DNA of 48,716 nucleotides. It comes from Natrinema gari JCM 14663. GTDB lineage: Archaea; Halobacteriota; Halobacteria; Halobacteriales; Natrialbaceae. The notes under the pieces are model-generated. The model had not been told where the DNA came from. It saw only the letters and a program-made list of their open reading frames with translations, and did no database searches. Position numbers and translations under genes: made by a program. Positions 3,668 through 48,716 of the stretch are shown here, in pieces. The stretch spans positions 1 to 48,716 of the forward strand of contig NZ_AOIJ01000046.1 in NCBI RefSeq assembly GCF_000337175.1. The letters run 5' to 3'. Each line of letters opens with the position of its first letter. The stretch's first letter is position 1.

Positions 3668-4059
3668 CCCGCCGAGTCGCGCGGCGGCGAGGGACTCGAG
3701 CCCGTCGAGTCGGGGTGATCGACGAGCGCTGCCACCGGGTCGTCGGCGGCGACGACCGGCCGATCTAACCGGACCTTGCCGACATCGCGGTCGTACTCGA
3801 GGACATCGTGCGCCTCGAGTTTCGGAAGGACGGCGTGGCTCAATGCGGCCCGGACGGCGTGTTCGTCGGCGTCGTCTCGCGTGGCGACGGCCTCGGTCAG
3901 TCCGGCGAGTGAGAGCGACGATGCACACGTCGAGAGGACGTGGAGCGTGAGACGCGTTCGGGGGTTCGCGAGAAGCGCGTACGCTTCGTCGAGGGGGATG
4001 TCCGTGAGACGAACGAACCGCTCGACATCGACGGCGGGGGCGCTGTTCGGTACCGACAT
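3664..4059 (-). CDS. Haloarchaeal winged-helix protein (DUF7344-type)
   Basis: A 131-residue predicted DNA-binding protein. It begins with an acidic tail, then EAYALLANPRTRLTLHVL (residues 25-42), the usual first helix of the haloarchaeal HTH family that I know as DUF7344, and continues with HAVLPKLEAHDVLEYDRD, the wing. ATG at 4057-4059 was chosen because a clear TATA box lies 20-30 nt upstream and the upstream reading frame has non-haloarchaeal composition. It sits convergent between the two cis-prenyltransferase genes; whether it regulates them cannot be seen. There is no effector domain. Confidence 0.75.
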   Translation of the reverse strand: MSVPNSAPAVDVERFVRLTDIPLDEAYALLANPRTRLTLHVLSTCASSLSLAGLTEAVATRDDADEHAVRAALSHAVLPKLEAHDVLEYDRDVGKVRLDRPVVAADDPVAALVDHPDSTGSSPSPPRDSAG

Positions 4060-29927: not shown

Positions 29928-31124
29928 ATGTACGACGAACTCATTCGAAGTGACGATCTGTCGCTCTCGCGGAAGTCCGTCCTGCCGGGGACCGGTTTCT
30001 TCCTGCCCGATACGCTCGAGGACGACCTCGCGGACCAACGGACCGAGGCCGCACTCGAGGGAGCCGAAACCGCGGTCATCGCCGATCCAGACGCCGACGG
30101 GCTGGCCTGTGTCGCGCTCATTCGAGAGGCCTACGACGACATCCAGAACGTTCCGGAGTCGGACGAGATCGATGACGACGGCGACACGACGGACCCCGCC
30201 GGCGCACCGCTCGAGGAGCCCGAGCCGACGCCCAACGGCGTCGCGTTGCTCCCTGCGAGTCCTCATGACGTGGAGGACGCGCTGGCTCGCGTCGCCGAGT
30301 ACGGCGACGACGGGATCGATATCTTCGTGTGCGACCTCGCGCCCGATCGGTACGAGTACGTCGCGGAGGAACTCACGGCCGCGCTCGAGATCGCCGATCG
30401 GCTCGCGTGGTACGACCACCACCAGTGGGGCGACGACGTCGCACGGGCGGTCCGGGATGCCGGGGTCGACCTCGTGATCGGCGACTCCGACGAGGAGTGT
30501 AGCGCCGACGTGGTCGCCCGCTCGCTCGAGTACGAGTTCGGGCCGATGTACGAGGAACTGGCCGCCGTGACCCGGGACCACGACCTCTGGCTGCGCGAGG
30601 ACCCGCGCAGCGACGACCTCGCGGATTACGCCTACTGGACCGATCCCGCGGAGTACGTCGAAGTCGTCCGCGAGTACGGCGTTGACCTCCCCGCGTGGGT
30701 CGAGGAGTATATTGCCGAGCGCCGCGTCGAGAAGGAGGCGCTCATCGATCAGGCCGTTGGCCGCGCCGAACTCCGCGAAATCGGCGGCTACACGGTCGGG
30801 ATCACCTACGGCCGTTGTTCGCAAAACGAGGTCGCTGAAGCGATGCGCGAACAGGGTGCCGACGCTTCGATCATCGTCAAGCCCGCCGGCTCGGCCTCCA
30901 TTCGCGGGACCGACGAGTTCGAACGCTGTCACGAGGTCGCGGGCAAGGTCAACGGCGGTGGCCACCCCAAAGCCGCGGGCTGCAAGCCCGACATCTACGA
31001 CGACATGCTCGACTACGCGAACCACTGGACGACGCGGGGGGCCGTGACGAAACGGGTCATTCTGGATGCGTTCCGTGATGTTCTCGCAGAAGATGCGAAT
31101 TCAACTGATGAGGGATACTGCTAG
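29928..31124 (+). CDS. DHH-family phosphoesterase (RecJ/Cdc45-like)
   Basis: A 398-residue phosphoesterase. Motif I is TAVIADPDADGLACVALIRE about residue 45, IFVCDLAPDRYEYV about 135 gives another metal Asp, and the DHH motif itself is AWYDHHQWGDD about 160. DHHA1 follows with VNGGGHPKAAGCKPD about 345. It may be a single-strand nuclease or oligonucleotide/cyclic dinucleotide phosphodiesterase. ATG 29928 (MYDELIRSDD). The extreme C-terminus DANSTDEGYC is atypical and coincides with the left edge of the AT-rich island, so the end may have been altered by an insertion. Confidence 0.88.
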   Translation: MYDELIRSDDLSLSRKSVLPGTGFFLPDTLEDDLADQRTEAALEGAETAVIADPDADGLACVALIREAYDDIQNVPESDEIDDDGDTTDPAGAPLEEPEPTPNGVALLPASPHDVEDALARVAEYGDDGIDIFVCDLAPDRYEYVAEELTAALEIADRLAWYDHHQWGDDVARAVRDAGVDLVIGDSDEECSADVVARSLEYEFGPMYEELAAVTRDHDLWLREDPRSDDLADYAYWTDPAEYVEVVREYGVDLPAWVEEYIAERRVEKEALIDQAVGRAELREIGGYTVGITYGRCSQNEVAEAMREQGADASIIVKPAGSASIRGTDEFERCHEVAGKVNGGGHPKAAGCKPDIYDDMLDYANHWTTRGAVTKRVILDAFRDVLAEDANSTDEGYC

Positions 31125-31166
31125 ATTAAACCTCCTCGTTTGAGGGGTTCGATAGGTGTTTAATCT
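31123..31166. repeat. 9-bp inverted repeat overlapping the DHH stop codon
   Basis: AGATTAAAC (31123-31131) and GTTTAATCT (31158-31166) are a perfect inverted repeat. Inside, CCTC and GAGG add a small stem. It marks the boundary between GC-rich chromosomal sequence and the AT-rich island. It may be a terminator or one end of the inserted segment. Confidence 0.5.
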
Positions 31167-31604
31167 CCAGACCATGGTGACTCCGATAGTAATTGGAAGA
31201 GGTACCAGTACTGGATGGTCGCTCGGTTCGGCTGACGCCGAACCACTTACACAAATCGCTACATCTTACCAATGAAGCCGATACAGCATGGTAGCACGTG
31301 ACAGCCTGAGTAGCTAGGCTGGCATGTGGGTTTGGTCACCATCAAAAAACGGTACGTCAGAAGACCCTGCTCTCAATCTGAGGGCCTTCGAATAGCACTT
31401 CCCTTCTCTTGCGGAACTCCGTGCAGTTCTGTCTTAGTAGTACCGACGAGAATAAATCACTGGCACTGTCTAGTTGAGTCAGTGTGAGAAGTGAACAGGG
31501 CGTTGAGTTTCTTGTCCAAAGATGCTCGCAGACCTGCTCATTATCCCTACTACTCACAAACTTGTTCACTTCTCAAACTGGCTTAACTAGTTAGTTCCGC
31601 TTAT
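31125..31604. other. 480-nt noncoding left arm of the AT-rich island with hairpins
   Basis: No convincing gene is present; the minus frame at 31357-31569 has no family likeness. Besides the repeat at 31123-31166 there are two perfect hairpins: GGTTCGGC/GCCGAACC with loop TGAC (31225-31244) and CAGCCT/AGGCTG (31302-31321). The density of stems suggests a structured RNA or a relic mobile-element end rather than plain spacer. Confidence 0.45.
31191..31206. repeat. Left copy of an imperfect 16-bp direct repeat flanking the island
   Basis: AATTGGAAGAGGTACC here and AATTAGGAGAGGTACC at 34035-34050 match in 14 of 16 positions in the same orientation and bracket nearly all of the low-GC island. They could be remnants of an attachment or target site; no integrase gene is seen. 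Confidence 0.35.
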
Positions 31605-32342
31605 TCAGGTTACATACGATTTGTAGATGTTTCTGGCCCACTCAACGGTTAAATCGTCTTCTGAAACCATACCCCCGATTTCTAGACCACGGTTATTGTA
31701 AAGACAGATCCAGGCAACGTCTTTATCAAGGGTTGAGAGCGCGAATGGTATTTCGTTTGCTGTCGTTTCTATTCTGATATCATTGGATTCATGTATCATT
31801 TCCCAGGATTGGTCGAAATCCGATTTGAGTTTCTGAAATATATCTTCCTCCAGCAATACCTCAATTGATCCCCCACTGTGTGAAAATTCTATGAAGAATT
31901 GGAGATACCACGAATTTATAACCGGAATTGCAATTTGAATGTGCTGTGTATCAGCTACTAATTTAGAAAGTTCCATTAGTACCTTTTGAGGACACTCTTT
32001 ATCATTTAGTATTATTTTCCCGTTGTCAAATATTTCTAATGGAAGTCGAGGAGTTTGACCCTGTTCGATGAGAATGATTTTTGCATTATTTATTGATTTG
32101 GATGCATTGGTAAATCTTTTGTATGCGTCATATAACATCAATCCAAATAATGTTGGATCAAGTGTGTTTTGCTCAAGTAGGTCTTCATCCCGCAAATCCT
32201 GGATTGAGCGGTCGATCGTTGAACGAGAAATGTTTAAACACCTCTCTAAGTCACGTTTTGTCCCACCTATTTCAATTAGCCTCTTTAAAACCTTCCATCT
32301 ATTAATAACTGTATATTCGTGATTGGGTATTTTTTCATTCAT
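31605..32342 (-). CDS. Winged-helix regulator with FilR1-like (DUF1724) sensor domain
   Basis: A 245-residue transcription regulator. Residues 12-60 are a winged helix (VLKRLIEIGGTKRDLERCLN, SRSTIDRSIQDLRDEDLLE). The remainder resembles the FilR1 middle domain known from archaeal regulators: PLEIFDNGKIILNDKECPQK about residue 100, IQIAIPVINSWYLQFFIEF about 135, and a C-terminal DKDVAWICLYNNRGLEIGG. Base composition is far more A/T-rich than neighbours, with many AAA, ATT and TTT codons, implying recent transfer. It is divergent from the Tat-protein gene and an identical 11-mer is present in both promoters, so it probably controls both. Confidence 0.85.
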   Translation of the reverse strand: MNEKIPNHEYTVINRWKVLKRLIEIGGTKRDLERCLNISRSTIDRSIQDLRDEDLLEQNTLDPTLFGLMLYDAYKRFTNASKSINNAKIILIEQGQTPRLPLEIFDNGKIILNDKECPQKVLMELSKLVADTQHIQIAIPVINSWYLQFFIEFSHSGGSIEVLLEEDIFQKLKSDFDQSWEMIHESNDIRIETTANEIPFALSTLDKDVAWICLYNNRGLEIGGMVSEDDLTVEWARNIYKSYVT

Positions 32343-32365
32343 CTGGTTAATTCACCCTATGTAGT

Positions 32366-32376
32366 GAATAAAGTTA
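32366..32376 (-). promoter_or_regulatory. Promoter/operator element of the regulator gene
   Basis: On the plus strand this is GAATAAAGTTA, on the minus strand TAACTTTATTC, lying 24-34 nt before the regulator ATG at the TATA position. The identical 11-mer is at 32496-32506 in the divergent promoter, making it a candidate binding site of the regulator (autoregulation). Confidence 0.45.
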
Positions 32377-32495
32377 CTACTAAAAATAAGTTGCCACTAT
32401 ATCCAGAAGATAGTGCCCTAGTTAGCCAAACCTAATAGTTTAGTTCATCGACATCAACCTCTGAGAATATTTCAAACTATGAATAGATATTCAGG

Positions 32496-32506
32496 GAATA
32501 AAGTTA
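32496..32506 (+). promoter_or_regulatory. Promoter/operator element of the Tat-protein gene
   Basis: GAATAAAGTTA occurs 24-34 nt before ATG 32530, identical to 32366-32376. Directly before it GAATAT (32465-32470) and ATATTC (32487-32492) form a short inverted repeat. Basal promoter and operator probably overlap. Confidence 0.45.
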
Positions 32507-32529
32507 ATACGTGATAGAGTAGTTCTAAA

Positions 32530-33519
32530 ATGGATATGGAAGATAAAAGATCCAATTCGAGTGGTAGAAACAATTCAACTAACCGGCGAACGTTTGTTGG
32601 AATGACGACTGGAAGTATACTGGGTCTCGCTCTTACAGGAAGTGCTGGAGCTCACCAGAGTAACGAATCTAACTACAAGGGAGAAAAAAAGAAGAAAACT
32701 AGTGCCGAAAAAGCCGAAAAGTACCGTGGCTCAAATGGACATGTGATGGAGGTAACACCAGAAAACTCAATGAGCGATAAGGAGGTGTCCGAAGCAATTG
32801 ATGAAATTAGCGAAAAGCATGGTGAAAGAGCGGCTCTGGCAACATTCCCCGACCGAGCACCAAGTAGATTAAACAAAGATAACCAGACAGTGAGTACGAT
32901 GATGGGTGACGGTGGTCTCACAGAGGGCGTAACAAGAGTCGACAGTTGGGATCACTCTTACGTTGTAGAGAATAGTATCAACCAGAACATATCCGAGACT
33001 AACCATTTTATCACACTATTCAAAACAGACGAGACTGATAGTGATGGTAACACAGTCTACCTCTGGAGAGGATACAATTATTCTGACGCCAAGAATGATC
33101 TAGCTGGGAAATACGCAACAAAATCAATGACTGCAAAGGTTCAGTTCAGAGATGATAATATGGAATTTGTGCAGTACGAACCCGATACAAAAGAAGAGTT
33201 CGGTAGTTCGGGGGATAGTATATCTTTGAACCTCGGATTCGCAGAAATTGGATCTGATTTCGGTGGCGGAAGCAGCGGCTATCAACAGCCATCCCCATCA
33301 AAAATTGAGGATGGATATGGAGAAGAACCACCGTCCAAGTATGAGGATGAATGGAATCCAGATCACAGTGGTGCTCAATTTGGATACGAAGTTGGTGATT
33401 GTATTACTGGACTAGCTACAGGTAGTTTCATTCTGGACACCCGCTCTTCAGGTCCAAGGTCGTTCTGGTGGAAAACACATGTAGATGTAGGGCTTGCTTC
33501 AATTTGTTCCATAACGTAA
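32530..33519 (+). CDS. Tat-exported protein of unknown family
   Basis: A 329-residue secreted protein. The N-terminus has a polar stretch, a twin-arginine signal NRRTFVGMTTGSILGLALTG (residues 19-38) and a cleavage-like SAGAHQ. The mature part has a Lys-rich start (KGEKKKKTSAEKAEKYRG), a region GHVMEVTPENSMSDKEVSEA, then Ser/Gly/Pro-rich stretches and a hydrophobic C-terminus with only two Cys (GDCITGLATGSFIL, LASICSIT). Lipoprotein and halocin C8-type Cys clusters are absent. Codon use is A/T-rich, unlike the genome. Function unknown; a secreted effector or bacteriocin-like product are possibilities only from context. Confidence 0.75.
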   Translation: MDMEDKRSNSSGRNNSTNRRTFVGMTTGSILGLALTGSAGAHQSNESNYKGEKKKKTSAEKAEKYRGSNGHVMEVTPENSMSDKEVSEAIDEISEKHGERAALATFPDRAPSRLNKDNQTVSTMMGDGGLTEGVTRVDSWDHSYVVENSINQNISETNHFITLFKTDETDSDGNTVYLWRGYNYSDAKNDLAGKYATKSMTAKVQFRDDNMEFVQYEPDTKEEFGSSGDSISLNLGFAEIGSDFGGGSSGYQQPSPSKIEDGYGEEPPSKYEDEWNPDHSGAQFGYEVGDCITGLATGSFILDTRSSGPRSFWWKTHVDVGLASICSIT

Positions 33520-33641
33520 TTTTATATTTATAGCATGTTTTTCTAGACAAGATCGCACAGGTGTTATTTTTAAATTGTTATGCTAAAATATAGCTGAGAA
33601 CAACCGATACATTCATGTAGTTTCAGATAGTATTTCTCACT

Positions 33642-33824
33642 ATGAACCATAGAGATCAGGTCAGTAATCTGCAACTCCTTGCTCTTACTATTTTCGGGAT
33701 AGTGGGTTTTGGCGCTAGTATCTTGTACGGGTTTGTTGGGAGATGGATCCTTGTAATAGCCTTTCTAATCGTTCTATACTTGCTATATCGTCTTGTTATT
33801 GCTGTCGAACATATATCAAATTGA
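33642..33824 (+). CDS. Two-helix membrane peptide
   Basis: A 60-residue protein with two hydrophobic helices: LLALTIFGIVGFGASILYGF and WILVIAFLIVLYLLYRLVIA, joined by the short turn VGR. The ends are polar and short. It starts 122 nt after the Tat-protein gene on the same strand. Size, topology and position would suit an immunity or partner protein for the secreted product, but that is inference; no family recognised. Confidence 0.6.
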   Translation: MNHRDQVSNLQLLALTIFGIVGFGASILYGFVGRWILVIAFLIVLYLLYRLVIAVEHISN

Positions 33825-34125
33825 GTTTTCTAAGTCAGTGAAATTTTATTCATATAATTGTATACCAATCAAACCGTATTTCGAGAGCTGCAATACATAT
33901 TTAATTATGGTATTATCAGAATTTTATTTCATTCAATACCGAATGTAAAGCAACCATCCGGTGGCTGCTCTGACAATAAGAAACCAACAACGTAGTACCT
34001 TTACAAACAAACTCAACTAGCCAGTTTCTAGGGGAATTAGGAGAGGTACCGACAAGTATTGAGAACACACATGTTTATAATATGGCTAATTCGAAATAGA
34101 GGCTACAATAGTCGATTTCAATTAT
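33825..34125. other. AT-rich, gene-free right arm of the island
   Basis: About 300 nt without a plausible frame. A/T content is very high (only about 16 G/C in 33841-33900). The right copy of the 16-bp direct repeat lies in it (34035-34050), and GC-rich chromosome resumes near 34126 in the 3' end of the DUF5807-type gene. Confidence 0.6.
34035..34050. repeat. Right copy of the imperfect 16-bp direct repeat
   Basis: AATTAGGAGAGGTACC, 14 of 16 identical to 31191-31206 and in the same orientation, near the right edge of the low-GC island. Confidence 0.35.
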
Positions 34126-34566
34126 CTAACTGGTACTCTTTTCATCAACTGCGTTCCATCGGTCCGAGAACGCCGTCCCGCACGTGCACTGGGCGTAGGC
34201 GTGGACGACAGCTCCCTCGGCGTAGATGCCGCCAACCTCCTCGTTCTGTGCTTCGGCGAACGCGAAGACGAACTGGACCGCGTGGTCTTCATCGTCCGAC
34301 GCGTCCGGGCAGTGACCGTCGGTCAGGTCGCCCTCGATTTCCCCTTCGTTGCTCATCGCGGACTTGGCGAACTCCATCGCACCGGTTCCCGTCGCCGCCT
34401 GAAAGGCGCTCCGGCCGCGCTCGCCGTCGACTACGATCAGAATGCCATCGTCGACGCGGTCCCCGAACCGCTCGAGTCGCTCGTCCGAAACGTAAGAGTC
34501 CGCCAGAAACAACGCAACGTCCTCGAGGCGGTCGCCCGCCAGAAACTCCTCGCGTGGGTTACTCAT
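34126..34566 (-). CDS. Conserved haloarchaeal protein (probably DUF5807)
   Basis: A 146-residue acidic soluble protein: MSNPREEFLAGDRLEDVALF then GDRVDDGILIVVDGERGRSA, a beta-rich second half HAVQFVFAFAEAQNEEVGG and a C-terminal CTCGTAFSDRW, a possible CxC metal/redox pair. I believe this is DUF5807, not confirmed. The last few codons reach into the AT-rich island edge and give EKSTS. ATG 34564-34566. Function unknown. Confidence 0.75.
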   Translation of the reverse strand: MSNPREEFLAGDRLEDVALFLADSYVSDERLERFGDRVDDGILIVVDGERGRSAFQAATGTGAMEFAKSAMSNEGEIEGDLTDGHCPDASDDEDHAVQFVFAFAEAQNEEVGGIYAEGAVVHAYAQCTCGTAFSDRWNAVDEKSTS

Positions 34567-34864
34567 GGCCACGGATTCACGCTCGACGTGGAAAAAGGGC
34601 GGTATTCGCGTCGCTCCGTTCGGGACCGACACACGACCCACAGTCAGCCGCCCGATTACGGGTGTTTCGGCGGTTGACGTTTGTCGTTTCCGTTCCGATC
34701 TATTAATTTATGAGAGCGGGCGACCGTTCGTTTCCCTGCCGCTTAATACGTCTCAGTGATACGGACTCAGTAGTCGTATCGCTGTCCCGCACTCGCTCCA
34801 CCGTTGGTCGACCACAGCCGGCGGCCGAGGACGCCCATCTCACGACCCCCACCAGTGATCGTCA

Positions 34865-40892: not shown

Positions 40893-42188
40893 TCAGTTCT
40901 CCTCGCCGGACTCGCCCACCGTCGACACATCCGCGCCGGGCGGTCGAGTACGATTCCGGCTCTCGTCCGGAGTCGCGTCCCCGTCACCGACCGCGTCCGC
41001 TTCGGACCCAGCCTCGGAAATCGAGTCCGGGCGGTCACCGGTGCCGTTGTCGCCGACCGCCGCCGACGGCGGTCGCGGCGGTTCGAAGACGGCCACGAAG
41101 TCGTCGCGGCGAACGGCGTACACTGCCCGGTCCGGGTCGAAGACGATCGCGGTGTCGACATCGATGCCGTACGCGGCCAGCGCCGCCAGGGAATCCACGT
41201 GTGCGTGGGGTCCCTCGAGCGCCGCGTCGGGAAGCGGCAGGACCGTGACGACCTCGTCGAACTGCTCGCGGTCGTCGCGGTACGCGAGCCACTCGCGGTC
41301 GGCCGCCGTCGGTCCGGGGAACCGACGCGAGGCGACCGCGATCGCACCGAGGCCGCCGAGTCCGGCCGCGACGAGCAGCGGTCCGCCGAGGGATCGCATG
41401 GGGCCAGCAGCGGGGGACGCGGATACGGTTTCGTACTCCTCGTAGGATTCGTTGTACGCGTCGCTCGCTTCGTCCTTGAGCCGATAGGTCCCGTCCTCGA
41501 CGCTGATCGGGACCGTGTAGTCGTCCGCGACCGACCGCTCCGCGCCGTCGATCGTGCCATCGATCTCTCGCTCGAGGACGAGGCGGAGTTCCGTCTTCCC
41601 GGGACTCGCTCCGAGGTCGGATTCGATCCGGTCGATTCGTGCCGTGACGGCGGAGACGTTGACGTCGAACGCCGCGGTGACGGACTCGCCCGGCTGGACG
41701 GCCGTTTCGTTCGTCGCCGCGAGCGGTTCGCGCTCGCGCCAGTACACGGTCCCGTTGTCGGGGTCGACCGACCGATACACCAACTCGACCGTCAGGGAGA
41801 CGCTAACGTCCGCAGCGCCGTCGGCCGCGTAGCCCCCGACGAACGTCCCGTTGACCGTCGGACTGACGGCCGAGTAGTACAGCGGTTCGTTCTCGAGTCG
41901 CGTCCCCGCCGGATAGACCGCAGTCGGTTCGGTGACGGAGGCACCGTGAGAGACGGCCCCCGTGGCGGTCCAAGTCGTCTCGACCCGACGGGTCGTTTCC
42001 GCCTCTCCGGTCGGGGCTGCGTAGGCACCGTAACTCATCCACGCGCCCACGGCGAGTAGGCAAATCAGGACGACGACGGCCGGCGTTCGATACGTCGCGA
42101 GCAGGACGCGGAGCCGCACCCGACGCTCCGCGTCCGCCCTCGTTCGTCGCTCCGTCGCGTCGTCGGTTTCGGTCGATCGGAAACACAT
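40893..42188 (-). CDS. DUF5305 family membrane protein
   Basis: A 431-residue protein of the DUF5305 family. One helix near the N-terminus (TPAVVVLICLLAVGAWMSYG, about 35-54) is followed by a beta-rich extracellular domain (about 65-265; GTRLENEPLYYSAVSPTVNG, PGESVTAAFDVNVSAVT), a second helix (LGGPLLVAAGLGGLGAIAVA, about 265-285) and an acidic cytoplasmic tail. Its gene starts 23 nt after the signal peptidase gene, so they are cotranscribed; a role as an accessory or scaffold in the same export system is an inference. ATG 42186-42188. Confidence 0.85.
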   Translation of the reverse strand: MCFRSTETDDATERRTRADAERRVRLRVLLATYRTPAVVVLICLLAVGAWMSYGAYAAPTGEAETTRRVETTWTATGAVSHGASVTEPTAVYPAGTRLENEPLYYSAVSPTVNGTFVGGYAADGAADVSVSLTVELVYRSVDPDNGTVYWREREPLAATNETAVQPGESVTAAFDVNVSAVTARIDRIESDLGASPGKTELRLVLEREIDGTIDGAERSVADDYTVPISVEDGTYRLKDEASDAYNESYEEYETVSASPAAGPMRSLGGPLLVAAGLGGLGAIAVASRRFPGPTAADREWLAYRDDREQFDEVVTVLPLPDAALEGPHAHVDSLAALAAYGIDVDTAIVFDPDRAVYAVRRDDFVAVFEPPRPPSAAVGDNGTGDRPDSISEAGSEADAVGDGDATPDESRNRTRPPGADVSTVGESGEEN

Positions 42189-42211
42189 AGTTCGTGCTCT
42201 GATACAGGGTC

Positions 42212-43360
42212 TCAGTACAACCGCCGGACGAACGATCGCGCCCCCGTACAGCGACTGCGGACCGCCGCCCGTTTCGAGCGGACGTCACCCGGGCCGATGA
42301 GCCATCGACTCAGCAGATACGTCCCACCTCCGAGCAGCGAGACGATCGTCGCGAACGGGAGCCACGGGTGGCACTCGTAGAGCGCGTCGATGACTGGCGC
42401 TGGCAGGACGCATAGATAGCGATACTCGGTGACGTACGTCGGGTAGTGGCCCGTCTCGTCGGGGGCCGTGATCGAAACCGCAACCGTCGTCTCCCCACGG
42501 GGCCCGACCGTCGCCCGTTCGGGCTCGAGGTGGACGTTCTCGTCGCCGGACTCGACGTAGGACCGCGTCGGGACGACCCCGCCGTTGGAAATCGAATAGG
42601 GGACGTCGTCGGTCGTCCCTCGCTCGATCACCAGCGGGCGGTCCGACTCGAACTCCGCGCTGATAACGTCGTAGGACTGGGTACCGGCCGGGACGAGCAT
42701 CGCTGCGGCGGCGGCGAGACCGACCAGAAGCGCGAACCCCGCCGCAAGCAACCGGGGATCGATCCAGCCGTCTCCGGTCCCGCGCTCGTCGCCGGTCGTT
42801 CTCGACTCGAGGGAAGGGGACCGCCGTTCACGAACCGTTTCGACGGCGTAGAGGACGATCGAGAACCCGAGGATCGGCAGCGCGAACTCCGACGCGTCAC
42901 CGGACTCGCTGACGCCGAGTCGGGCTCCGACGCGCTCGAACGTCTCACCTGCCGTCATCACGGTCGTCCCCAGCAGCGGAAGCGTCACGACCTCGCCGTT
43001 CACTCGCCAGCCCTCGGCGACGATCTGGGCGTCCCGGACGTGGGGCTCGCCGCTGTCCTGATCGGTAAACGGGTTCGCGTCCCCGCGCGTAACGTAGCCC
43101 TGTGAGGTCTCCTCGACGACTCGATGAGTCGTGAGACCGCCGCCCTGGATTTTCGTCGCTTCGAAGACGATGATATCGCCCGGCTTGGGATCGTCGGTCA
43201 GTTCGCTTGGGATCGCCACGAATCCGTCGCCGGTGTCGATCGTCGGCTCCATGCTCCCCGTTTCGACGAATCCCAGCAGAACCGGCTGCCCGACGACGAG
43301 AGCACCGAGGGTAACCAGTACGATGCCCCCGACCCCTCGTGTCACCTCTCGTCGAATCAT
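42212..43360 (-). CDS. Signal peptidase I, SipW-like, with C-terminal extension
   Basis: A 382-residue membrane peptidase. Residues 1-110 hold the archaeal/ER-type catalytic core: FVETGSMEPTIDTGDGFVA with nucleophile Ser36, GLTTHRVVEE with His79, and YVTRGDANPFTDQDSGE with the Asp residues. Normal haloarchaeal signal peptidases are shorter; here a long second half with several helices and an Ig-like extracellular region (VPTRSYVESGDENVHLEPE) is added. It lies next to short precursors with SipW-type signals, so it is probably their dedicated peptidase. ATG 43358-43360. Confidence 0.9.
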   Translation of the reverse strand: MIRREVTRGVGGIVLVTLGALVVGQPVLLGFVETGSMEPTIDTGDGFVAIPSELTDDPKPGDIIVFEATKIQGGGLTTHRVVEETSQGYVTRGDANPFTDQDSGEPHVRDAQIVAEGWRVNGEVVTLPLLGTTVMTAGETFERVGARLGVSESGDASEFALPILGFSIVLYAVETVRERRSPSLESRTTGDERGTGDGWIDPRLLAAGFALLVGLAAAAAMLVPAGTQSYDVISAEFESDRPLVIERGTTDDVPYSISNGGVVPTRSYVESGDENVHLEPERATVGPRGETTVAVSITAPDETGHYPTYVTEYRYLCVLPAPVIDALYECHPWLPFATIVSLLGGGTYLLSRWLIGPGDVRSKRAAVRSRCTGARSFVRRLY

Positions 43361-43383
43361 GCCTCACATAGTGCAGCAATAGT

Positions 43384-43398
43384 ATACTACTTATACAT
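43384..43398 (-). promoter_or_regulatory. TATA box of the signal peptidase gene
   Basis: On the minus strand GTATAAGTAGTATAC lies 24-38 nt before the ATG, in an A/T-rich island. The peptidase and DUF5305 genes therefore have their own promoter apart from the precursor genes upstream. Confidence 0.55.
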
Positions 43399-43543
43399 TT
43401 GTGATAGTTAACACGTTAGGCGGGGGAAACCGTGGCTCCCGCGGCTCGAGGCTGCTGCCGTTCGGGTCCGAATCGGGCCCTCGTCCCCGTCCATCGATGA
43501 CTCGAGGTGGGACTGCCCGTGGTCGCGTCCGGAGGAGCGAACC

Positions 43544-44089
43544 TTACATTGCCTCGGCCCTCACGATCGCGTCCGCATCGAAGTTCTCAACGGCCGACTC
43601 TCCGGTCTCGATCCTGAGGCCGATCACTTGCGCGGTGCCCGTTCCGAGGGTAATGGGATCGTCGTAAAGCAGGCTATCGACATCGGTCCCGGGGTAGAAC
43701 TGGACGGTGAGTCCGCTTGCAGTCGGGTCGAAGTCGCCGTCGGCCAACTTACCGATCGACACCGCGACCTCCTGGGAGCCCTGGTTCTCGATCCGGAACA
43801 CCTCGTCGAACTCGTAGACCGAATTCGGTCCGACGCCGTCGCCGTTGTCCGCCGTTCCGGTCGCGTCGTTGATGTCGATCGAAAGTTCGTTGTTGGCACT
43901 GCTGTCCTGGTTGACGAACGTCGCATTCGCCGCCTGCGTCGGACTGAGTGCGAGGTATGCCTGATCGTCGTCGGCGACGGTGACCCCGACCGATCGATCG
44001 GCTTCGGCGCTCGTGAACGCACCCGTCCCGAGCGCGACGCCGCTGGTGGCGACCGCGCCGAATCCGGCCAACAGCCGTCTCCGATTCAT
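43544..44089 (-). CDS. SipW-type secreted precursor, DUF1102/TasA-like
   Basis: A 181-residue secreted protein. The N-terminus MNRRRLLAGFGAVATSGVAL is a twin-arginine/SipW-like signal, with GTGAFTSAEADRSV at the cleavage region. The mature domain is beta-rich: SVGVTVADDDQAYLALSP, an Asn/Asp-rich stretch, then VFRIENQGSQEVAVSIG and IGLRIETGESAVENF. This is the pattern of archaeal DUF1102 proteins related to TasA/camelysin fibre proteins. ATG 44087-44089 preferred over 44104. It follows the similar 44104-44631 gene after 14 nt. Confidence 0.82.
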   Translation of the reverse strand: MNRRRLLAGFGAVATSGVALGTGAFTSAEADRSVGVTVADDDQAYLALSPTQAANATFVNQDSSANNELSIDINDATGTADNGDGVGPNSVYEFDEVFRIENQGSQEVAVSIGKLADGDFDPTASGLTVQFYPGTDVDSLLYDDPITLGTGTAQVIGLRIETGESAVENFDADAIVRAEAM

Positions 44090-44103
44090 ACTCGACGACC
44101 TCA

Positions 44104-44631
44104 TCAGGCCTCCGCGCCGATCGTCAGCGTTCCCGAGAGATTCGACGTGCCGGCGTTGATGGCGAAGTCCACGTTGACCGACTTGCCGACCCCGAGTTCG
44201 TAGGTGTCATCACTATCGCCGTCGTCCTCCGCGAGCGCGACGGTGATACCGTCCGAACTCGGTGCCGAGAGACTCCCCGGCAACTGCGCACTCAGGTCAC
44301 CCGACCCGCTCAGACTGACCTCCACGGGTTGAGTCCCCTGATTCGTGATCGTGAACACGTCCTCGGCGACGGTGTCCGCGTTCGGATTCACACCGTTGCC
44401 GCCGTTGCTGGAGTCGACGAAGTCGACGGCGTACTCGTCGCCGGACGTGTCGAAGTACATATCGTTCGCCTCCCCCGAGTTGTCCAGTCCGAGGTACGCG
44501 TTGGCGTCCTCGGTGACCTGCACGTCGACCTGTCGGTCGGCCTCGACGCTCGAGAACGCGCCGGTTCCGATAACTGCGGCTGTGCCCGATGCCAGTGCTC
44601 CCATTCCGATGACGAATTTGCGTCGTTGCAT
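44104..44631 (-). CDS. SipW-type secreted precursor, DUF1102/TasA-like
   Basis: A 175-residue paralogue of the next gene. The signal is MQRRKFVIGMGALASGTAAV, then GTGAFSSVEADRQVDVQV. The mature domain has NAYLGLDNSGEANDMYFD, VFTITNQGTQPVEVSLSG and GKSVNVDFAINAG, ending with TIGAEA. It is the first gene of the minus-strand operon. Its mature part is Asp/Asn/Ser-rich with few Lys, as expected for a halophile surface or matrix protein. ATG 44629-44631. Confidence 0.85.
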   Translation of the reverse strand: MQRRKFVIGMGALASGTAAVIGTGAFSSVEADRQVDVQVTEDANAYLGLDNSGEANDMYFDTSGDEYAVDFVDSSNGGNGVNPNADTVAEDVFTITNQGTQPVEVSLSGSGDLSAQLPGSLSAPSSDGITVALAEDDGDSDDTYELGVGKSVNVDFAINAGTSNLSGTLTIGAEA

Positions 44632-44701
44632 TGGTGAATTCTCCGTTGTCGTGTGGCCTGCGTCCGACCGCTCGTCACCTACGCCGCGACTCGTCGCGTC
44701 T

Positions 44702-44720
44702 GATCCCCGCCGCGGGGATC
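44702..44720. promoter_or_regulatory. 19-bp palindrome upstream of the precursor operon
   Basis: GATCCCCG and CGGGGATC are separated by three bases. It lies 71 nt before the precursor start and 25 nt inside a TATA-like patch (tattgtaatacg on the plus strand, about 44748). It could be an operator or a 5'-leader hairpin. The whole divergent gap (44632-45148) has no gene. Confidence 0.45.
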
Positions 44721-45097
44721 ACGGATCGGGGATGGCTGACAAGGGATATTGTAATACGTTCGTGTCCGAAATCTCAACCGCTCCTTCGGCGGATTCAACC
44801 GTCTGCTGACCAGTTCGGAACGATTGGCTATGCCCGGTTGACCCGCCCGAAGCGAAACGCAACGTCGTATGCCCTGCGGCCCGGTGTCCGTCGGTTCGGA
44901 GTCAACGGGTCACTGACCGAGCGATCAGTGCGGTATTGGGATCGTTGACTCCCGGGTCCGGCCGTCCCTGCAGCCTCGAGAGCTGGTCTATCGACGGTTG
45001 ACGCGTCGGTATGCCAGGGTTTCGTCTCACGATACCGGTCGGAACACGAGAAAGGAGTCAATAAAATCGGGGTTTTCGAACCGATCACGGACAACCA

Positions 45098-45105
45098 CTT
45101 ATTTA
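45098..45105 (+). promoter_or_regulatory. TATA box of the membrane HTH gene
   Basis: CTTATTTA lies 44-51 nt before ATG 45149, predicting a leader of roughly 20 nt. Confidence 0.45.
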
Positions 45106-45148
45106 CGTCCTAACACTTTTACCGGGGAATGTAGTACGTCGATCCGAA

Positions 45149-45817
45149 ATGGGGGCGACTCAGATCGAACCGTCCGGGGACGCTGACGCGTCGCAGCCGG
45201 ACCCGGACCCCGAATCAGACGAGATGGGGGTGAACGCCTCGGCAGCCGCCGACTCGCTCACCGAGGACGAACTCTTTACCATCCTCTCGAACCGACGACG
45301 GCGGTACATTCTCCACGAGTTGATGCGAGCGGACGAACGGCTCGATATCGGCACCCTCTCGCAGGAAATCGCCGCCTGTGAGGACGACATCGAACTCACG
45401 GAGGTCTCGAGCAGCGACCGCAAACGGGTGTACACGGCGCTTCGCCAGTCGCATCTCCCGAAGATGGACGAGGCCGGCGTCGTCGATTTCGACCGCGATC
45501 GGGGAACGGTCGAACCGACCCCCGCCCTCGAGGACGTCGAAATTTACATGGACATCGTCCGCGGGCGCGAGATTCCCTGGAGCGACTACTATCTCGGATT
45601 GGTGGCGCTTTCCGGCCTCTTATTTGCGGTCGTGTCGATCGGACCCGGCCCGTTCGCGTCGCTCTCGCCGTCAGCGTGGGGCCTGTTCGTCGTCGTCTCC
45701 TTCGGCGTCTCCGCGGTCGCCCACCGCTACTACGCGCGACGCACCCGCCTCGGAATCGGCGACGACCCGTCGGCCGTGGCCCTTGAGTACCGGAACGAAA
45801 CGGACCCGGACGGCTGA
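45149..45817 (+). CDS. Membrane-anchored DUF7344-type regulator
   Basis: A 222-residue protein with an acidic N-terminal 35 residues, a winged helix (about 38-120; ELFTILSNRRRRYILHELMR, SSSDRKRVYTALRQSHLPKM, DEAGVVDFDRDRGTVEP), then two membrane helices (YYLGLVALSGLLFAVVSIG, LSPSAWGLFVVVSFGVSAVA) and a short tail. This architecture is common in haloarchaea. Placed divergently from the SipW/precursor operon and before another precursor gene, it probably regulates this cluster. ATG 45149. Confidence 0.82.
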   Translation: MGATQIEPSGDADASQPDPDPESDEMGVNASAAADSLTEDELFTILSNRRRRYILHELMRADERLDIGTLSQEIAACEDDIELTEVSSSDRKRVYTALRQSHLPKMDEAGVVDFDRDRGTVEPTPALEDVEIYMDIVRGREIPWSDYYLGLVALSGLLFAVVSIGPGPFASLSPSAWGLFVVVSFGVSAVAHRYYARRTRLGIGDDPSAVALEYRNETDPDG

Positions 45818-45905
45818 TGGCGCGTCGACCGGTCGGCGCGACCTCGAGACCGCACTCGCCATCGGCAGCGCCCCCGCCAGCGAACCCACTGGACACGAAC
45901 GGCCC

Positions 45906-46481
45906 ATGAAACGAACGCGACGCGCTGCGCTGGCCCTGATCGCCGGTTCGAGTAGCGTCCTCGCCGTCGAAACGGCCGGGTTCTCGAGCGCGGACGCTGA
46001 CCGTGACGTTCGCGTCGCCCCCGCCAGTGACGCAACCGGCTATCTCGGACTGACTGAGGATGGGGTCGAGGACGACGGCGTGCTGTTCGGAGGAGGCCCG
46101 CGCCACCCGCCAGTCCGGTTCGATCTCAGCAACCAGTGTCCGGCGTCGCTCACCGTCGCGCTTACCGTCGACCCGTTTCGGCTTCAGTCGGCCGACGGGG
46201 AGTCGATCGACGGCACCCGGTTCGTCATCGACGGCGGGACCGGAGGATTAGGGCCGGGCGAGCGGGTCGACGCCGTGACGATCGGGGTCCCGCCGGACTC
46301 GGTCGACAGCGGGGAGACGATCACCGGACTGGTCGCGATCGATGCGAGAGGAGACGACATCCGCATCGAAGCCGAGCGCGAACTCACGATCGCGGTCCCC
46401 GACACGGGGTCGAGACAGCAACGCTCGGGTACGACTGGGCAGTCGGGGTCAGTGCCGGCATCGAACTCGAGCGAGTCCTGA
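45906..46481 (+). CDS. Third SipW-type precursor, divergent DUF1102-like
   Basis: A 191-residue secreted protein. The signal MKRTRRAALALIAGSSSVLA then AGFSSADADRDV parallels the two precursors across the divergent promoter, and RDVRVAPASDATGYLGLTED matches their mature start. The rest is beta-rich (GGTGGLGPGERVDAVTIG, GETITGLVAIDARGDDIRIE). The signal keeps only a KRTRR basic patch. It is 88 nt after the HTH gene on the same strand. Confidence 0.72.
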   Translation: MKRTRRAALALIAGSSSVLAVETAGFSSADADRDVRVAPASDATGYLGLTEDGVEDDGVLFGGGPRHPPVRFDLSNQCPASLTVALTVDPFRLQSADGESIDGTRFVIDGGTGGLGPGERVDAVTIGVPPDSVDSGETITGLVAIDARGDDIRIEAERELTIAVPDTGSRQQRSGTTGQSGSVPASNSSES

Positions 46482-48698: not shown

Positions 48699-48716
48699 CT
48701 GTCTCTTATACACATC
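48699..48716. other. Tn5/Nextera mosaic-end adapter (reverse complement)
   Basis: The last 18 bases are the reverse complement of the sequence at 1-19: untrimmed library adapter. The contig ends here inside aconitase. Confidence 0.95.

What the first reader, a model, noticed from the sequence alone, without database searches (positions are those of the whole stretch)
40893..46481. SipW/TasA-like export cluster with its own membrane-bound regulator
Three short precursors with the same signal and mature start (GTGAF-S/T-S-x-EADR type), a signal peptidase I with an extra ectodomain, a DUF5305 protein and a membrane-anchored HTH protein occupy 5.6 kb. In Bacillus, SipW processes TasA fibres of the biofilm matrix. 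An archaeal counterpart building extracellular fibres is a reasonable hypothesis.
Basis: partly seen in the sequence, partly recalled or inferred. Interest (0 to 1): 0.55.

Follow-up and report, generated by a model that had tools for sequence, protein, structure and literature searches.

The report
Second pilus locus in salt-loving archaeon
These genes look like a second, distantly related copy of a machine with which salt-loving archaea build thin protein hairs on their surface; a sister copy in the same genome encodes the exact protein seen in a solved hair structure, so the idea is sound but the kind of system is already known.

Summary
Window 40893-46481 encodes two precursors with near-identical signals (P0002, P0001), a third with a related signal (P0006), an archaeal signal peptidase I with a membrane-anchored ectodomain, a DUF5305 protein and a membrane-anchored DUF7344 HTH protein. 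Ectodomain peptidase and pilin-like precursors co-occur in 86 of 146 genomes of the order (4 peptidase only, 3 precursor only, 53 neither). Best model: Tat-type export, cleavage at GA|FS by the dedicated peptidase, donor-strand polymerisation. By the curated model the peptidase is not SipW; kinship to TasA is indirect, through AbpA. The roles of DUF5305 and the HTH protein, and biofilm, are inferred or untested. New here: the window locus belongs to a separate peptidase clade with its own promoter element, and DUF5305 belongs to the fimbrial locus. I could not read the Tafi publication; part of this may already be in it.

The parts
40893..42188 (-). DUF5305 membrane protein (P0004, 431 aa): N-terminal helix/TM, beta-sandwich ectodomain, second TM, small C-terminal domain; likely assembly or anchoring partner of the peptidase
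   Evidence: PF17231 180.9 bits; hydropathy segments 26-58 and 267-287; AlphaFold model pLDDT 85.9; next to the ectodomain peptidase in 61 of 64 loci; 103 of 128 peptidase matches in 146 genomes have it within 3 kb
42212..43360 (-). dedicated signal peptidase I (P0003, 382 aa) with a TM-anchored ectodomain after the catalytic part
   Evidence: TIGR02228 54.5 bits, cut-off 51.85; S36, H79, D94, D100 identical in 82 of 82 aligned relatives; 44% identity over 316 aa to its C49 paralogue, ectodomain included
43544..44104 (-). precursor A (P0001, 186 aa, or 181 aa from the internal Met), fimbrial subunit
   Evidence: DUF1102 29.2 bits; TafE model 53.7 bits, under cut-off 155; PDB 9p0a E=4.8e-12; 36% identical to P0002
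44104..44631 (-). precursor B (P0002, 175 aa), fimbrial subunit; its stop overlaps the start of A by one base
   Evidence: TafE model 73.5 bits, under cut-off 155; PDB 9p0a E=3.4e-12; AlphaFold model pLDDT 79.7 with Foldseek top match 9p0a, then 7ueg and 7pnb
44747..44757 (-). GTATTACAATA, conserved promoter or operator element 126 nt upstream of precursor B
   Evidence: only exact copy in 4.02 Mb; in 15 of 21 window-type loci and in none of 59 other-clade loci, 1.07 Mb
44632..45148 (.). divergent intergenic region with 4 GTCAAC/GTTGAC hexamers, possible regulator sites (hexamer chosen after inspection)
   Evidence: 0 of 500 shuffles reach 4
45149..45817 (+). DUF7344 winged-HTH protein with two C-terminal TM segments (P0005, 222 aa), presumed local regulator
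   Evidence: PF24035 98.4 bits; hydropathy segments 146-172 and 172-190; 41% identical over 186 aa to the C49 counterpart; HTH within 7 kb in 58 of 64 loci
45906..46481 (+). precursor C (P0006, 191 aa), TafC-like protein in the TafC position just after the HTH gene
   Evidence: TafC model 41 bits, E=1.3e-10, residues 2-165, under cut-off 410; relatives beside the HTH gene in 17 loci; true TafC genes directly follow the HTH gene in L101 and L102

Best explanation
It is a second, paralogous Taf-type fimbria locus. Precursors B and A are exported folded through the Tat pathway (inferred from the twin arginine and the weak hydrophobic core). The neighbouring ectodomain signal peptidase cuts them at GA|FS (inferred from the first ordered residue of the sister pilus). 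The freed N-terminal strand of one subunit completes the sheet of the next, giving a donor-strand-linked filament (inferred by homology to the Tafi and AbpA filaments). DUF5305 and the peptidase ectodomain sit together in the membrane as the release or assembly platform (inferred from their almost fixed pairing). Precursor C is a minor, TafC-like subunit (inferred from profile and position). The membrane-bound HTH protein controls the divergent promoter (inferred). Shown: gene content, homology to the solved pilin, conserved neighbourhood, co-occurrence, active-site conservation.
For: Same-genome paralogous cluster on C49 with peptidase, DUF5305, HTH and a pilin 215/215 identical to 9p0a; 9p0a is titled Tafi pilus of Natrinema sp. 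J7-2. Precursors match 9p0a by sequence, and the model of B by fold. Clusters over the NCBIfam TafA/TafC/TafE cut-offs hold the same six parts in 2 of 2 inspected (L101, L102), and 9 of 9 TafA matches (E<=1e-20) lie 1.9-5.0 kb from an ectodomain-peptidase match. Co-occurrence of peptidase and pilin in 146 genomes: 86 both, 4 peptidase only, 3 pilin only, 53 neither. Mature start: 9p0a has 188 ordered residues of 215, aligned from residue 28. RR in 71 of 74 and GAF[STN] in 69 of 74 ORFs found with signal-free queries. Signal hydropathy maxima of P0001, P0002, P0006, P0007, P0014, P0016 are 1.22-1.56, against 2.14-2.48 in P0008, P0012, P0015.
Against: No window precursor reaches a Taf cut-off; nor does the solved pilin itself. 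The fold match is modest: VIA Z 8.8 to 7ueg and 7.8 to 9p0a (rmsd 9.2), the latter tied with unrelated Ig-like domains at 7.8. 13 of 64 loci show no same-strand precursor by my motif. The window cluster lacks the CARDB/TM gene of the C49 cluster. The co-occurrence test is not corrected for phylogeny. There are no expression or filament data for this locus.
Confidence: 0.8

Rival explanations
1. The cluster makes secreted or surface-bound monomeric proteins of the DUF1102 kind (for example adhesins or inhibitors) that use the pilin-type signal but do not polymerise.
For: Window precursors score below Taf cut-offs; two lone precursors on C30 and C57 have no own peptidase or DUF5305 beside them; the CARDB/TM gene found at C49 is absent here.
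Against: The mature N-terminus (GAF, R33) is shared with a polymerising pilin; the cluster has the same parts as true Taf clusters.
Confidence: 0.1
2. The window locus supplies minor or alternative subunits to the C49 pilus rather than a pilus of its own.
For: Both loci lie in one genome and share peptidase type, signal and subunit family.
Against: The window locus has its own peptidase, DUF5305, HTH and a different promoter element; its peptidase forms a separate clade (22 rows, support 100/99) kept across Natrialbaceae.
Confidence: 0.15
3. A true SipW/TasA system: camelysin-type matrix fibre with SipW peptidase, shared with Bacillus by descent or transfer.
For: Same logic of a neighbouring peptidase and fibre precursors; weak SipW model score (32.2 bits); a TasA paper says that some archaeal fibres are structurally related to TasA (PMC9674648, passage read), citing the AbpA study, and AbpA is the nearest solved fold by Z.
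Against: SipW cut-off 190 not reached, archaeal peptidase model passes; no camelysin/M73 hit; the peptidase is 382 aa with an ectodomain, the SipW model 189 positions; signals are Tat-like.
Confidence: 0.04

Closest known systems
Tafi pilus of Natrinema sp. J7-2 (PDB 9p0a)
   Same: Pilin encoded identically on contig C49 of this genome beside the same peptidase, DUF5305 and HTH families
   Different: Window locus has two tandem subunits instead of one, lacks the CARDB/TM gene, has a P0006-type gene instead of a bactofilin-like repeat protein after the HTH gene, and another promoter element
NCBIfam Taf fimbriae (TafA, TafC, TafE)
   Same: Same six-part locus: two short precursors, HTH, post-HTH TafC, ectodomain peptidase, DUF5305
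   Different: Window precursors score 73.5 and 53.7 of 155 (TafE) and 41 of 410 (TafC), below the equivalog cut-offs
Archaeal bundling pili AbpA (PDB 7ueg) and Saci_0406 threads (7pnb)
   Same: Fold of the precursor B model; donor-strand filaments per PMC9715654 (passages read)
   Different: Threads are described there as Sec substrates of signal peptidase I; here Tat-type signals and a peptidase encoded in the cluster
Bacillus SipW-TasA-TapA
   Same: Fibre precursors beside a peptidase; works like it in outline (recalled)
   Different: Not SipW by the curated model; no camelysin family hit; ectodomain, DUF5305 and HTH have no counterpart that I tested

Membership tests
Taf/Tafi fimbria locus | Precursors homologous to the solved Tafi pilin | tested here: met
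   9p0a E=3.4e-12 (P0002), 4.8e-12 (P0001), 0.0017 (P0006)
Taf/Tafi fimbria locus | Neighbouring ectodomain peptidase, DUF5305, DUF7344 HTH | tested here: met
NCBIfam TafA/TafC/TafE equivalogs | Score over the curated cut-off | tested here: not met
   73.5 and 53.7 of 155, 41 of 410; the solved Tafi pilin also fails, 77.1 of 155, so the cut-off marks a subgroup and not the system
Taf/Tafi fimbria locus | Forms an extracellular filament | not testable with these tools
   needs microscopy of this locus
SipW signal peptidase | Score over the NF046067 cut-off | tested here: not met
   32.2 of 190 bits
Archaeal signal peptidase I (TIGR02228) | Score over cut-off and conserved catalytic residues | tested here: met
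   54.5 bits, cut-off 51.85; S36, H79, D94, D100 in 82 of 82
TasA/camelysin (Peptidase M73) | Pfam camelysin match | tested here: not met
   no such hit for P0001, P0002, P0006 at E<=1
TasA/camelysin (Peptidase M73) | TasA fold of the mature domain | tested here: inconclusive
   AbpA and Tafi matched; TasA not among the 50 rows printed of 458 Foldseek matches
Type IV pilin | Pilin_N (class III signal) match | tested here: not met
   no Pilin_N hit for P0001, P0002, P0006 at E<=1
DUF1102 | Score over Pfam gathering cut-off | tested here: met
   P0001 only, 29.2 bits, cut-off 22.2; P0002 and P0006 no hit

The most novel reading that the evidence does not exclude
The ectodomain peptidase and DUF5305 form a membrane assembly platform that couples cleavage of a Tat signal to donor-strand handover, an usher-like role in a cell with a single membrane. 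A genome then keeps several such platforms, each serving its own fimbria under its own membrane-bound regulator.
Probability: 0.3. Interest if true: 0.7.

Novelty: new member of a known kind. Interest (0 to 1): 0.42.

Why it matters
It ties a family of unknown function (DUF5305) and an unusual signal peptidase to archaeal donor-strand fimbriae, and points to a genome with two such loci, one of them with a solved structure. That makes the question of how these archaea build such fibres without a chaperone-usher system testable by simple gene removals.

Tried and rejected
SipW and TasA as family names: rejected for the peptidase on the curated cut-off, left open for the fold. Type IV pilus: no Pilin_N match. 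Leader hairpin in the precursor B transcript: z-score -0.61, 52 of 200 shuffles fold as well, rejected. A longer operator pattern GTCAACSRNNCNATA: 13 matches in the window against 10.3 expected, rejected; the short hexamer kept as a weak lead was chosen after seeing the alignment. DUF5305 as a known fold: best VIA Z 7.6, background level; Foldseek's top rows are Kir cytoplasmic domains at TM-score under 0.2 of the query, read as a generic beta-sandwich. A first neighbour count with a GC filter and a tighter start rule gave 44 of 64 loci with a precursor and DUF5305 next in 59 of 64; the filter dropped real pilins and I replaced it (51 and 61). My home-made CARDB, PC and BACTO profiles drifted; no count rests on them.

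Literature: ten searches. No paper on Taf or Tafi archaeal fimbriae was listed in them; the library lacks most subscription journals, so this says nothing about what is in print. The AbpA paper is not held.
Full report
What is there. Precursor B (44104-44631 -) and precursor A (43544-44104 -) overlap by one base; the peptidase (42212-43360 -) and DUF5305 (40893-42188 -) follow on the same strand with gaps of 183 and 23 bases. The HTH gene (45149-45817 +) is divergent across a 517-base gap and is followed by precursor C (45906-46481 +). A and B share the GTGAF[S/T]S-x-EADR mature start; C has AGFSSADADR, a weaker likeness than the finding says.

Family assignments. P0004 is DUF5305 (180.9 bits). 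P0003 passes the archaeal signal peptidase model (54.5, cut-off 51.85) and not SipW (32.2, cut-off 190). P0005 is DUF7344 (98.4); that family has 19 matches in this genome, so the domain alone is not specific to fimbriae. P0001 is DUF1102 (29.2, cut-off 22.2). The NCBIfam fimbrial models match the precursors well below their cut-offs: P0002 TafE 73.5 of 155, P0001 TafE 53.7 of 155, P0006 TafC 41 of 410.

The sister locus. The genome (4.02 Mb, 88 contigs) holds only two DUF5305 genes, each beside one of the two peptidase genes that pass the archaeal model. On C49 the order is DUF5305, peptidase, a protein with CARDB domains and a C-terminal TM, then the pilin P0007; divergently a DUF7289 protein, the HTH protein and a bactofilin-like repeat protein. 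P0007 is identical over 215 of 215 residues to PDB 9p0a, whose title is Structure of Natrinema sp. J7-2 Tafi pilus, released 2025-07-23. The window peptidase is 44% identical to its C49 paralogue over 316 residues, the HTH proteins 41% over 186, and precursor B 38% to the solved pilin over its first 115; DUF5305 is 26%. P0006 and the C49 post-HTH protein show no meaningful BLAST similarity.

Conservation of the locus. A scan of genome contigs with the two peptidases confirmed 109 relatives, of which 80 loci were kept. Of the 64 with at least 7 kb upstream and 3 kb downstream: DUF5305 next in 61, HTH within 7 kb in 58 (56 divergent, upstream), a same-strand precursor by the Tat-plus-F motif in 51, all three in 47. 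ORFs with the motif: 123 of 5106 inside the cluster span, 13 of 2079 outside; both counts include non-coding frames. In 146 genomes drawn from the order without regard to the cluster, DUF5305 is in 91, the ectodomain peptidase in 90, pilin-like precursors in 89. Peptidase and DUF5305 share 89 genomes. Peptidase and precursors: 86 both, 4 peptidase only, 3 precursor only, 53 neither; Fisher p 4e-31, uncorrected for relatedness. 103 of 128 peptidase matches have DUF5305 within 3 kb and 114 within 10 kb; of the other 14, those in G026, G038 and G076 have their DUF5305 gene farther off on the same contig.

Link to named Taf clusters. TafA (E<=1e-20) is found in 9 of 146 genomes, 7 over cut-off. 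All 9 lie 1.9-5.0 kb from an ectodomain-peptidase match; 7 of 9 have DUF5305 within 3.7 kb. In two clusters over cut-off (L101, L102) I read the genes: TafE, TafA, HTH, TafC, DUF5305 and peptidase, with TafC directly after the HTH gene, as P0006 is here. A third, L103, has below-cut-off relatives in the same setting plus a CARDB protein. So the window cluster has the parts list of a Taf cluster, and P0006 sits in the TafC place.

Two old peptidase lines. A tree of 82 peptidases puts the window protein in a clade of 22 (support 100/99) and the C49 protein in another of 28 (100/100); several genera of Natrialbaceae, Natrinema among them, have both. The lines also differ in their promoters. GTATTACAATA lies 126 bases before precursor B; it is the only exact copy in the genome, is in 15 of 21 window-type loci (17 sites; two of the six loci without it are contigs of about 5 kb) and in none of 59 other-clade loci. 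Two of the 17 sites (L030, L031 at 8111) are not in front of a recognised precursor. In the C49 line AATACAAAG is shared by 14 of 14 upstream regions that I chose and aligned, and CAATACAAAG occurs once in the genome, before the solved pilin. These could be core promoters or regulator sites.

Export, cleavage, assembly. Queries without the signal find 74 ORFs outside the own genome; 71 have RR upstream and 69 GAF[STN]. The maximal hydropathy of the precursor signals is 1.22-1.56, against 2.14-2.48 for three related proteins with plain signals, as expected of Tat signals (general knowledge). In the alignment A2 of 69 precursors R3, G24, A25, F26 and R33 are invariant, but A2 was picked with a motif that asks for two basic residues and a [GAS][FY][STN] step, and long members were left out (67 of the 93 listed, plus P0001 and P0002), so part of this is built in. 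9p0a has 188 ordered residues, aligned from residue 28 of 215, which puts the mature start at Phe28, just after GTGA; this is my reading of lengths and ranges, not of the publication. The AlphaFold model of P0002 (pLDDT 79.7) has low confidence and no structure up to residue 46 and forms strands from 47 on, which fits an N-terminal donor strand that orders only in the filament. Foldseek ranks 9p0a (1.2e-4), AbpA 7ueg (2.6e-3) and thread 7pnb (6.5e-3) first. VIA gives 7ueg Z 8.8 (111 residues, 2.9 A) and 9p0a Z 7.8 (137 residues, 9.2 A), with unrelated Ig-like domains at 7.8: the fold alone would not settle it; sequence homology does.

Peptidase and DUF5305. S36, H79, D94 and D100 are identical in 82 of 82 peptidases; their catalytic role is recalled from archaeal and ER-type signal peptidases. 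The DUF5305 model (pLDDT 85.9) has a long N-terminal helix, a beta-sandwich at 64-257, a helix 263-289 and a small C-terminal domain. No solved relative stands out. I infer an assembly or anchoring role from its pairing with the peptidase. In the C49 line and others a CARDB protein lies between pilin and peptidase; the C49 one ends in a TM segment, and the one in L043 also has a DUF1102 domain (26.4 bits, cut-off 22.2), which suggests a membrane-anchored end subunit. The window locus lacks it, as do the close relatives L018 and L019, so its fimbria must be held in another way or be released.

Papers. Read as passages: PMC9715654 and PMC9674648. The second says that some archaeal fibres are structurally related to TasA. 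All others were seen only as search listings. SipW, TapA and their roles beyond these passages are recalled.

Verdict. The worth lies in the second paralogous locus, the assignment of DUF5305 and of the ectodomain peptidase to this system, and the clade-specific promoter elements.

Noticed in passing
window 48699-48716 and G000:C46:48733-48750: The window ends in CTGTCTCTTATACACATC, which I recall as the Nextera transposase end; in the contig it continues with an N, a short stretch and its inverse. The 18-mer occurs 54 times in the assembly, 0 by the backwards control, so contigs are joined over unremoved adapters. None lies within the cluster or within L013.
   Followed up: yes
window 31100-34600: AT-rich island (GC 0.39-0.58 by kilobase against about 0.66 around it) with a FilR1/HVO_A0261-type regulator (31605-32342 -) and a 329-aa Tat-signal protein of no family (32530-33519 +), perhaps a secreted peptide precursor.
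   Followed up: partly
L014:5361-5927 + and L015:5606-6289 +: Two lone fimbrial-type precursors elsewhere in the genome with no peptidase or DUF5305 beside them; the second lies between a TFB-like gene and an NAD-synthetase-like gene (these two neighbour names are my reading of the sequence).
   Followed up: partly
L013:12523-13569 +: The C49 post-HTH protein has a GFSS-type mature start followed by glycine-rich repeats that match bactofilin and FapA profiles just under their cut-offs: an exported bactofilin-like protein would be unusual.
   Followed up: no
window 44632-45148: GTCAAC/GTTGAC hexamers: 4 in the window, 5, 6, 7 and 4 in L020, L021, L025, L028, 0 of 500 shuffles as many in each; 2, 2, 1 and 3 in L018, L019, L026, L027, with weaker or no excess.
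   Followed up: partly
L042:4629-8106: A Halobacterium locus with four tandem precursors before one peptidase: subunit number varies widely between loci.
   Followed up: no
window 3769-3978 -: A weaker DUF7344 domain (42 bits) elsewhere in the window, not next to fimbrial genes that I noticed.
   Followed up: no
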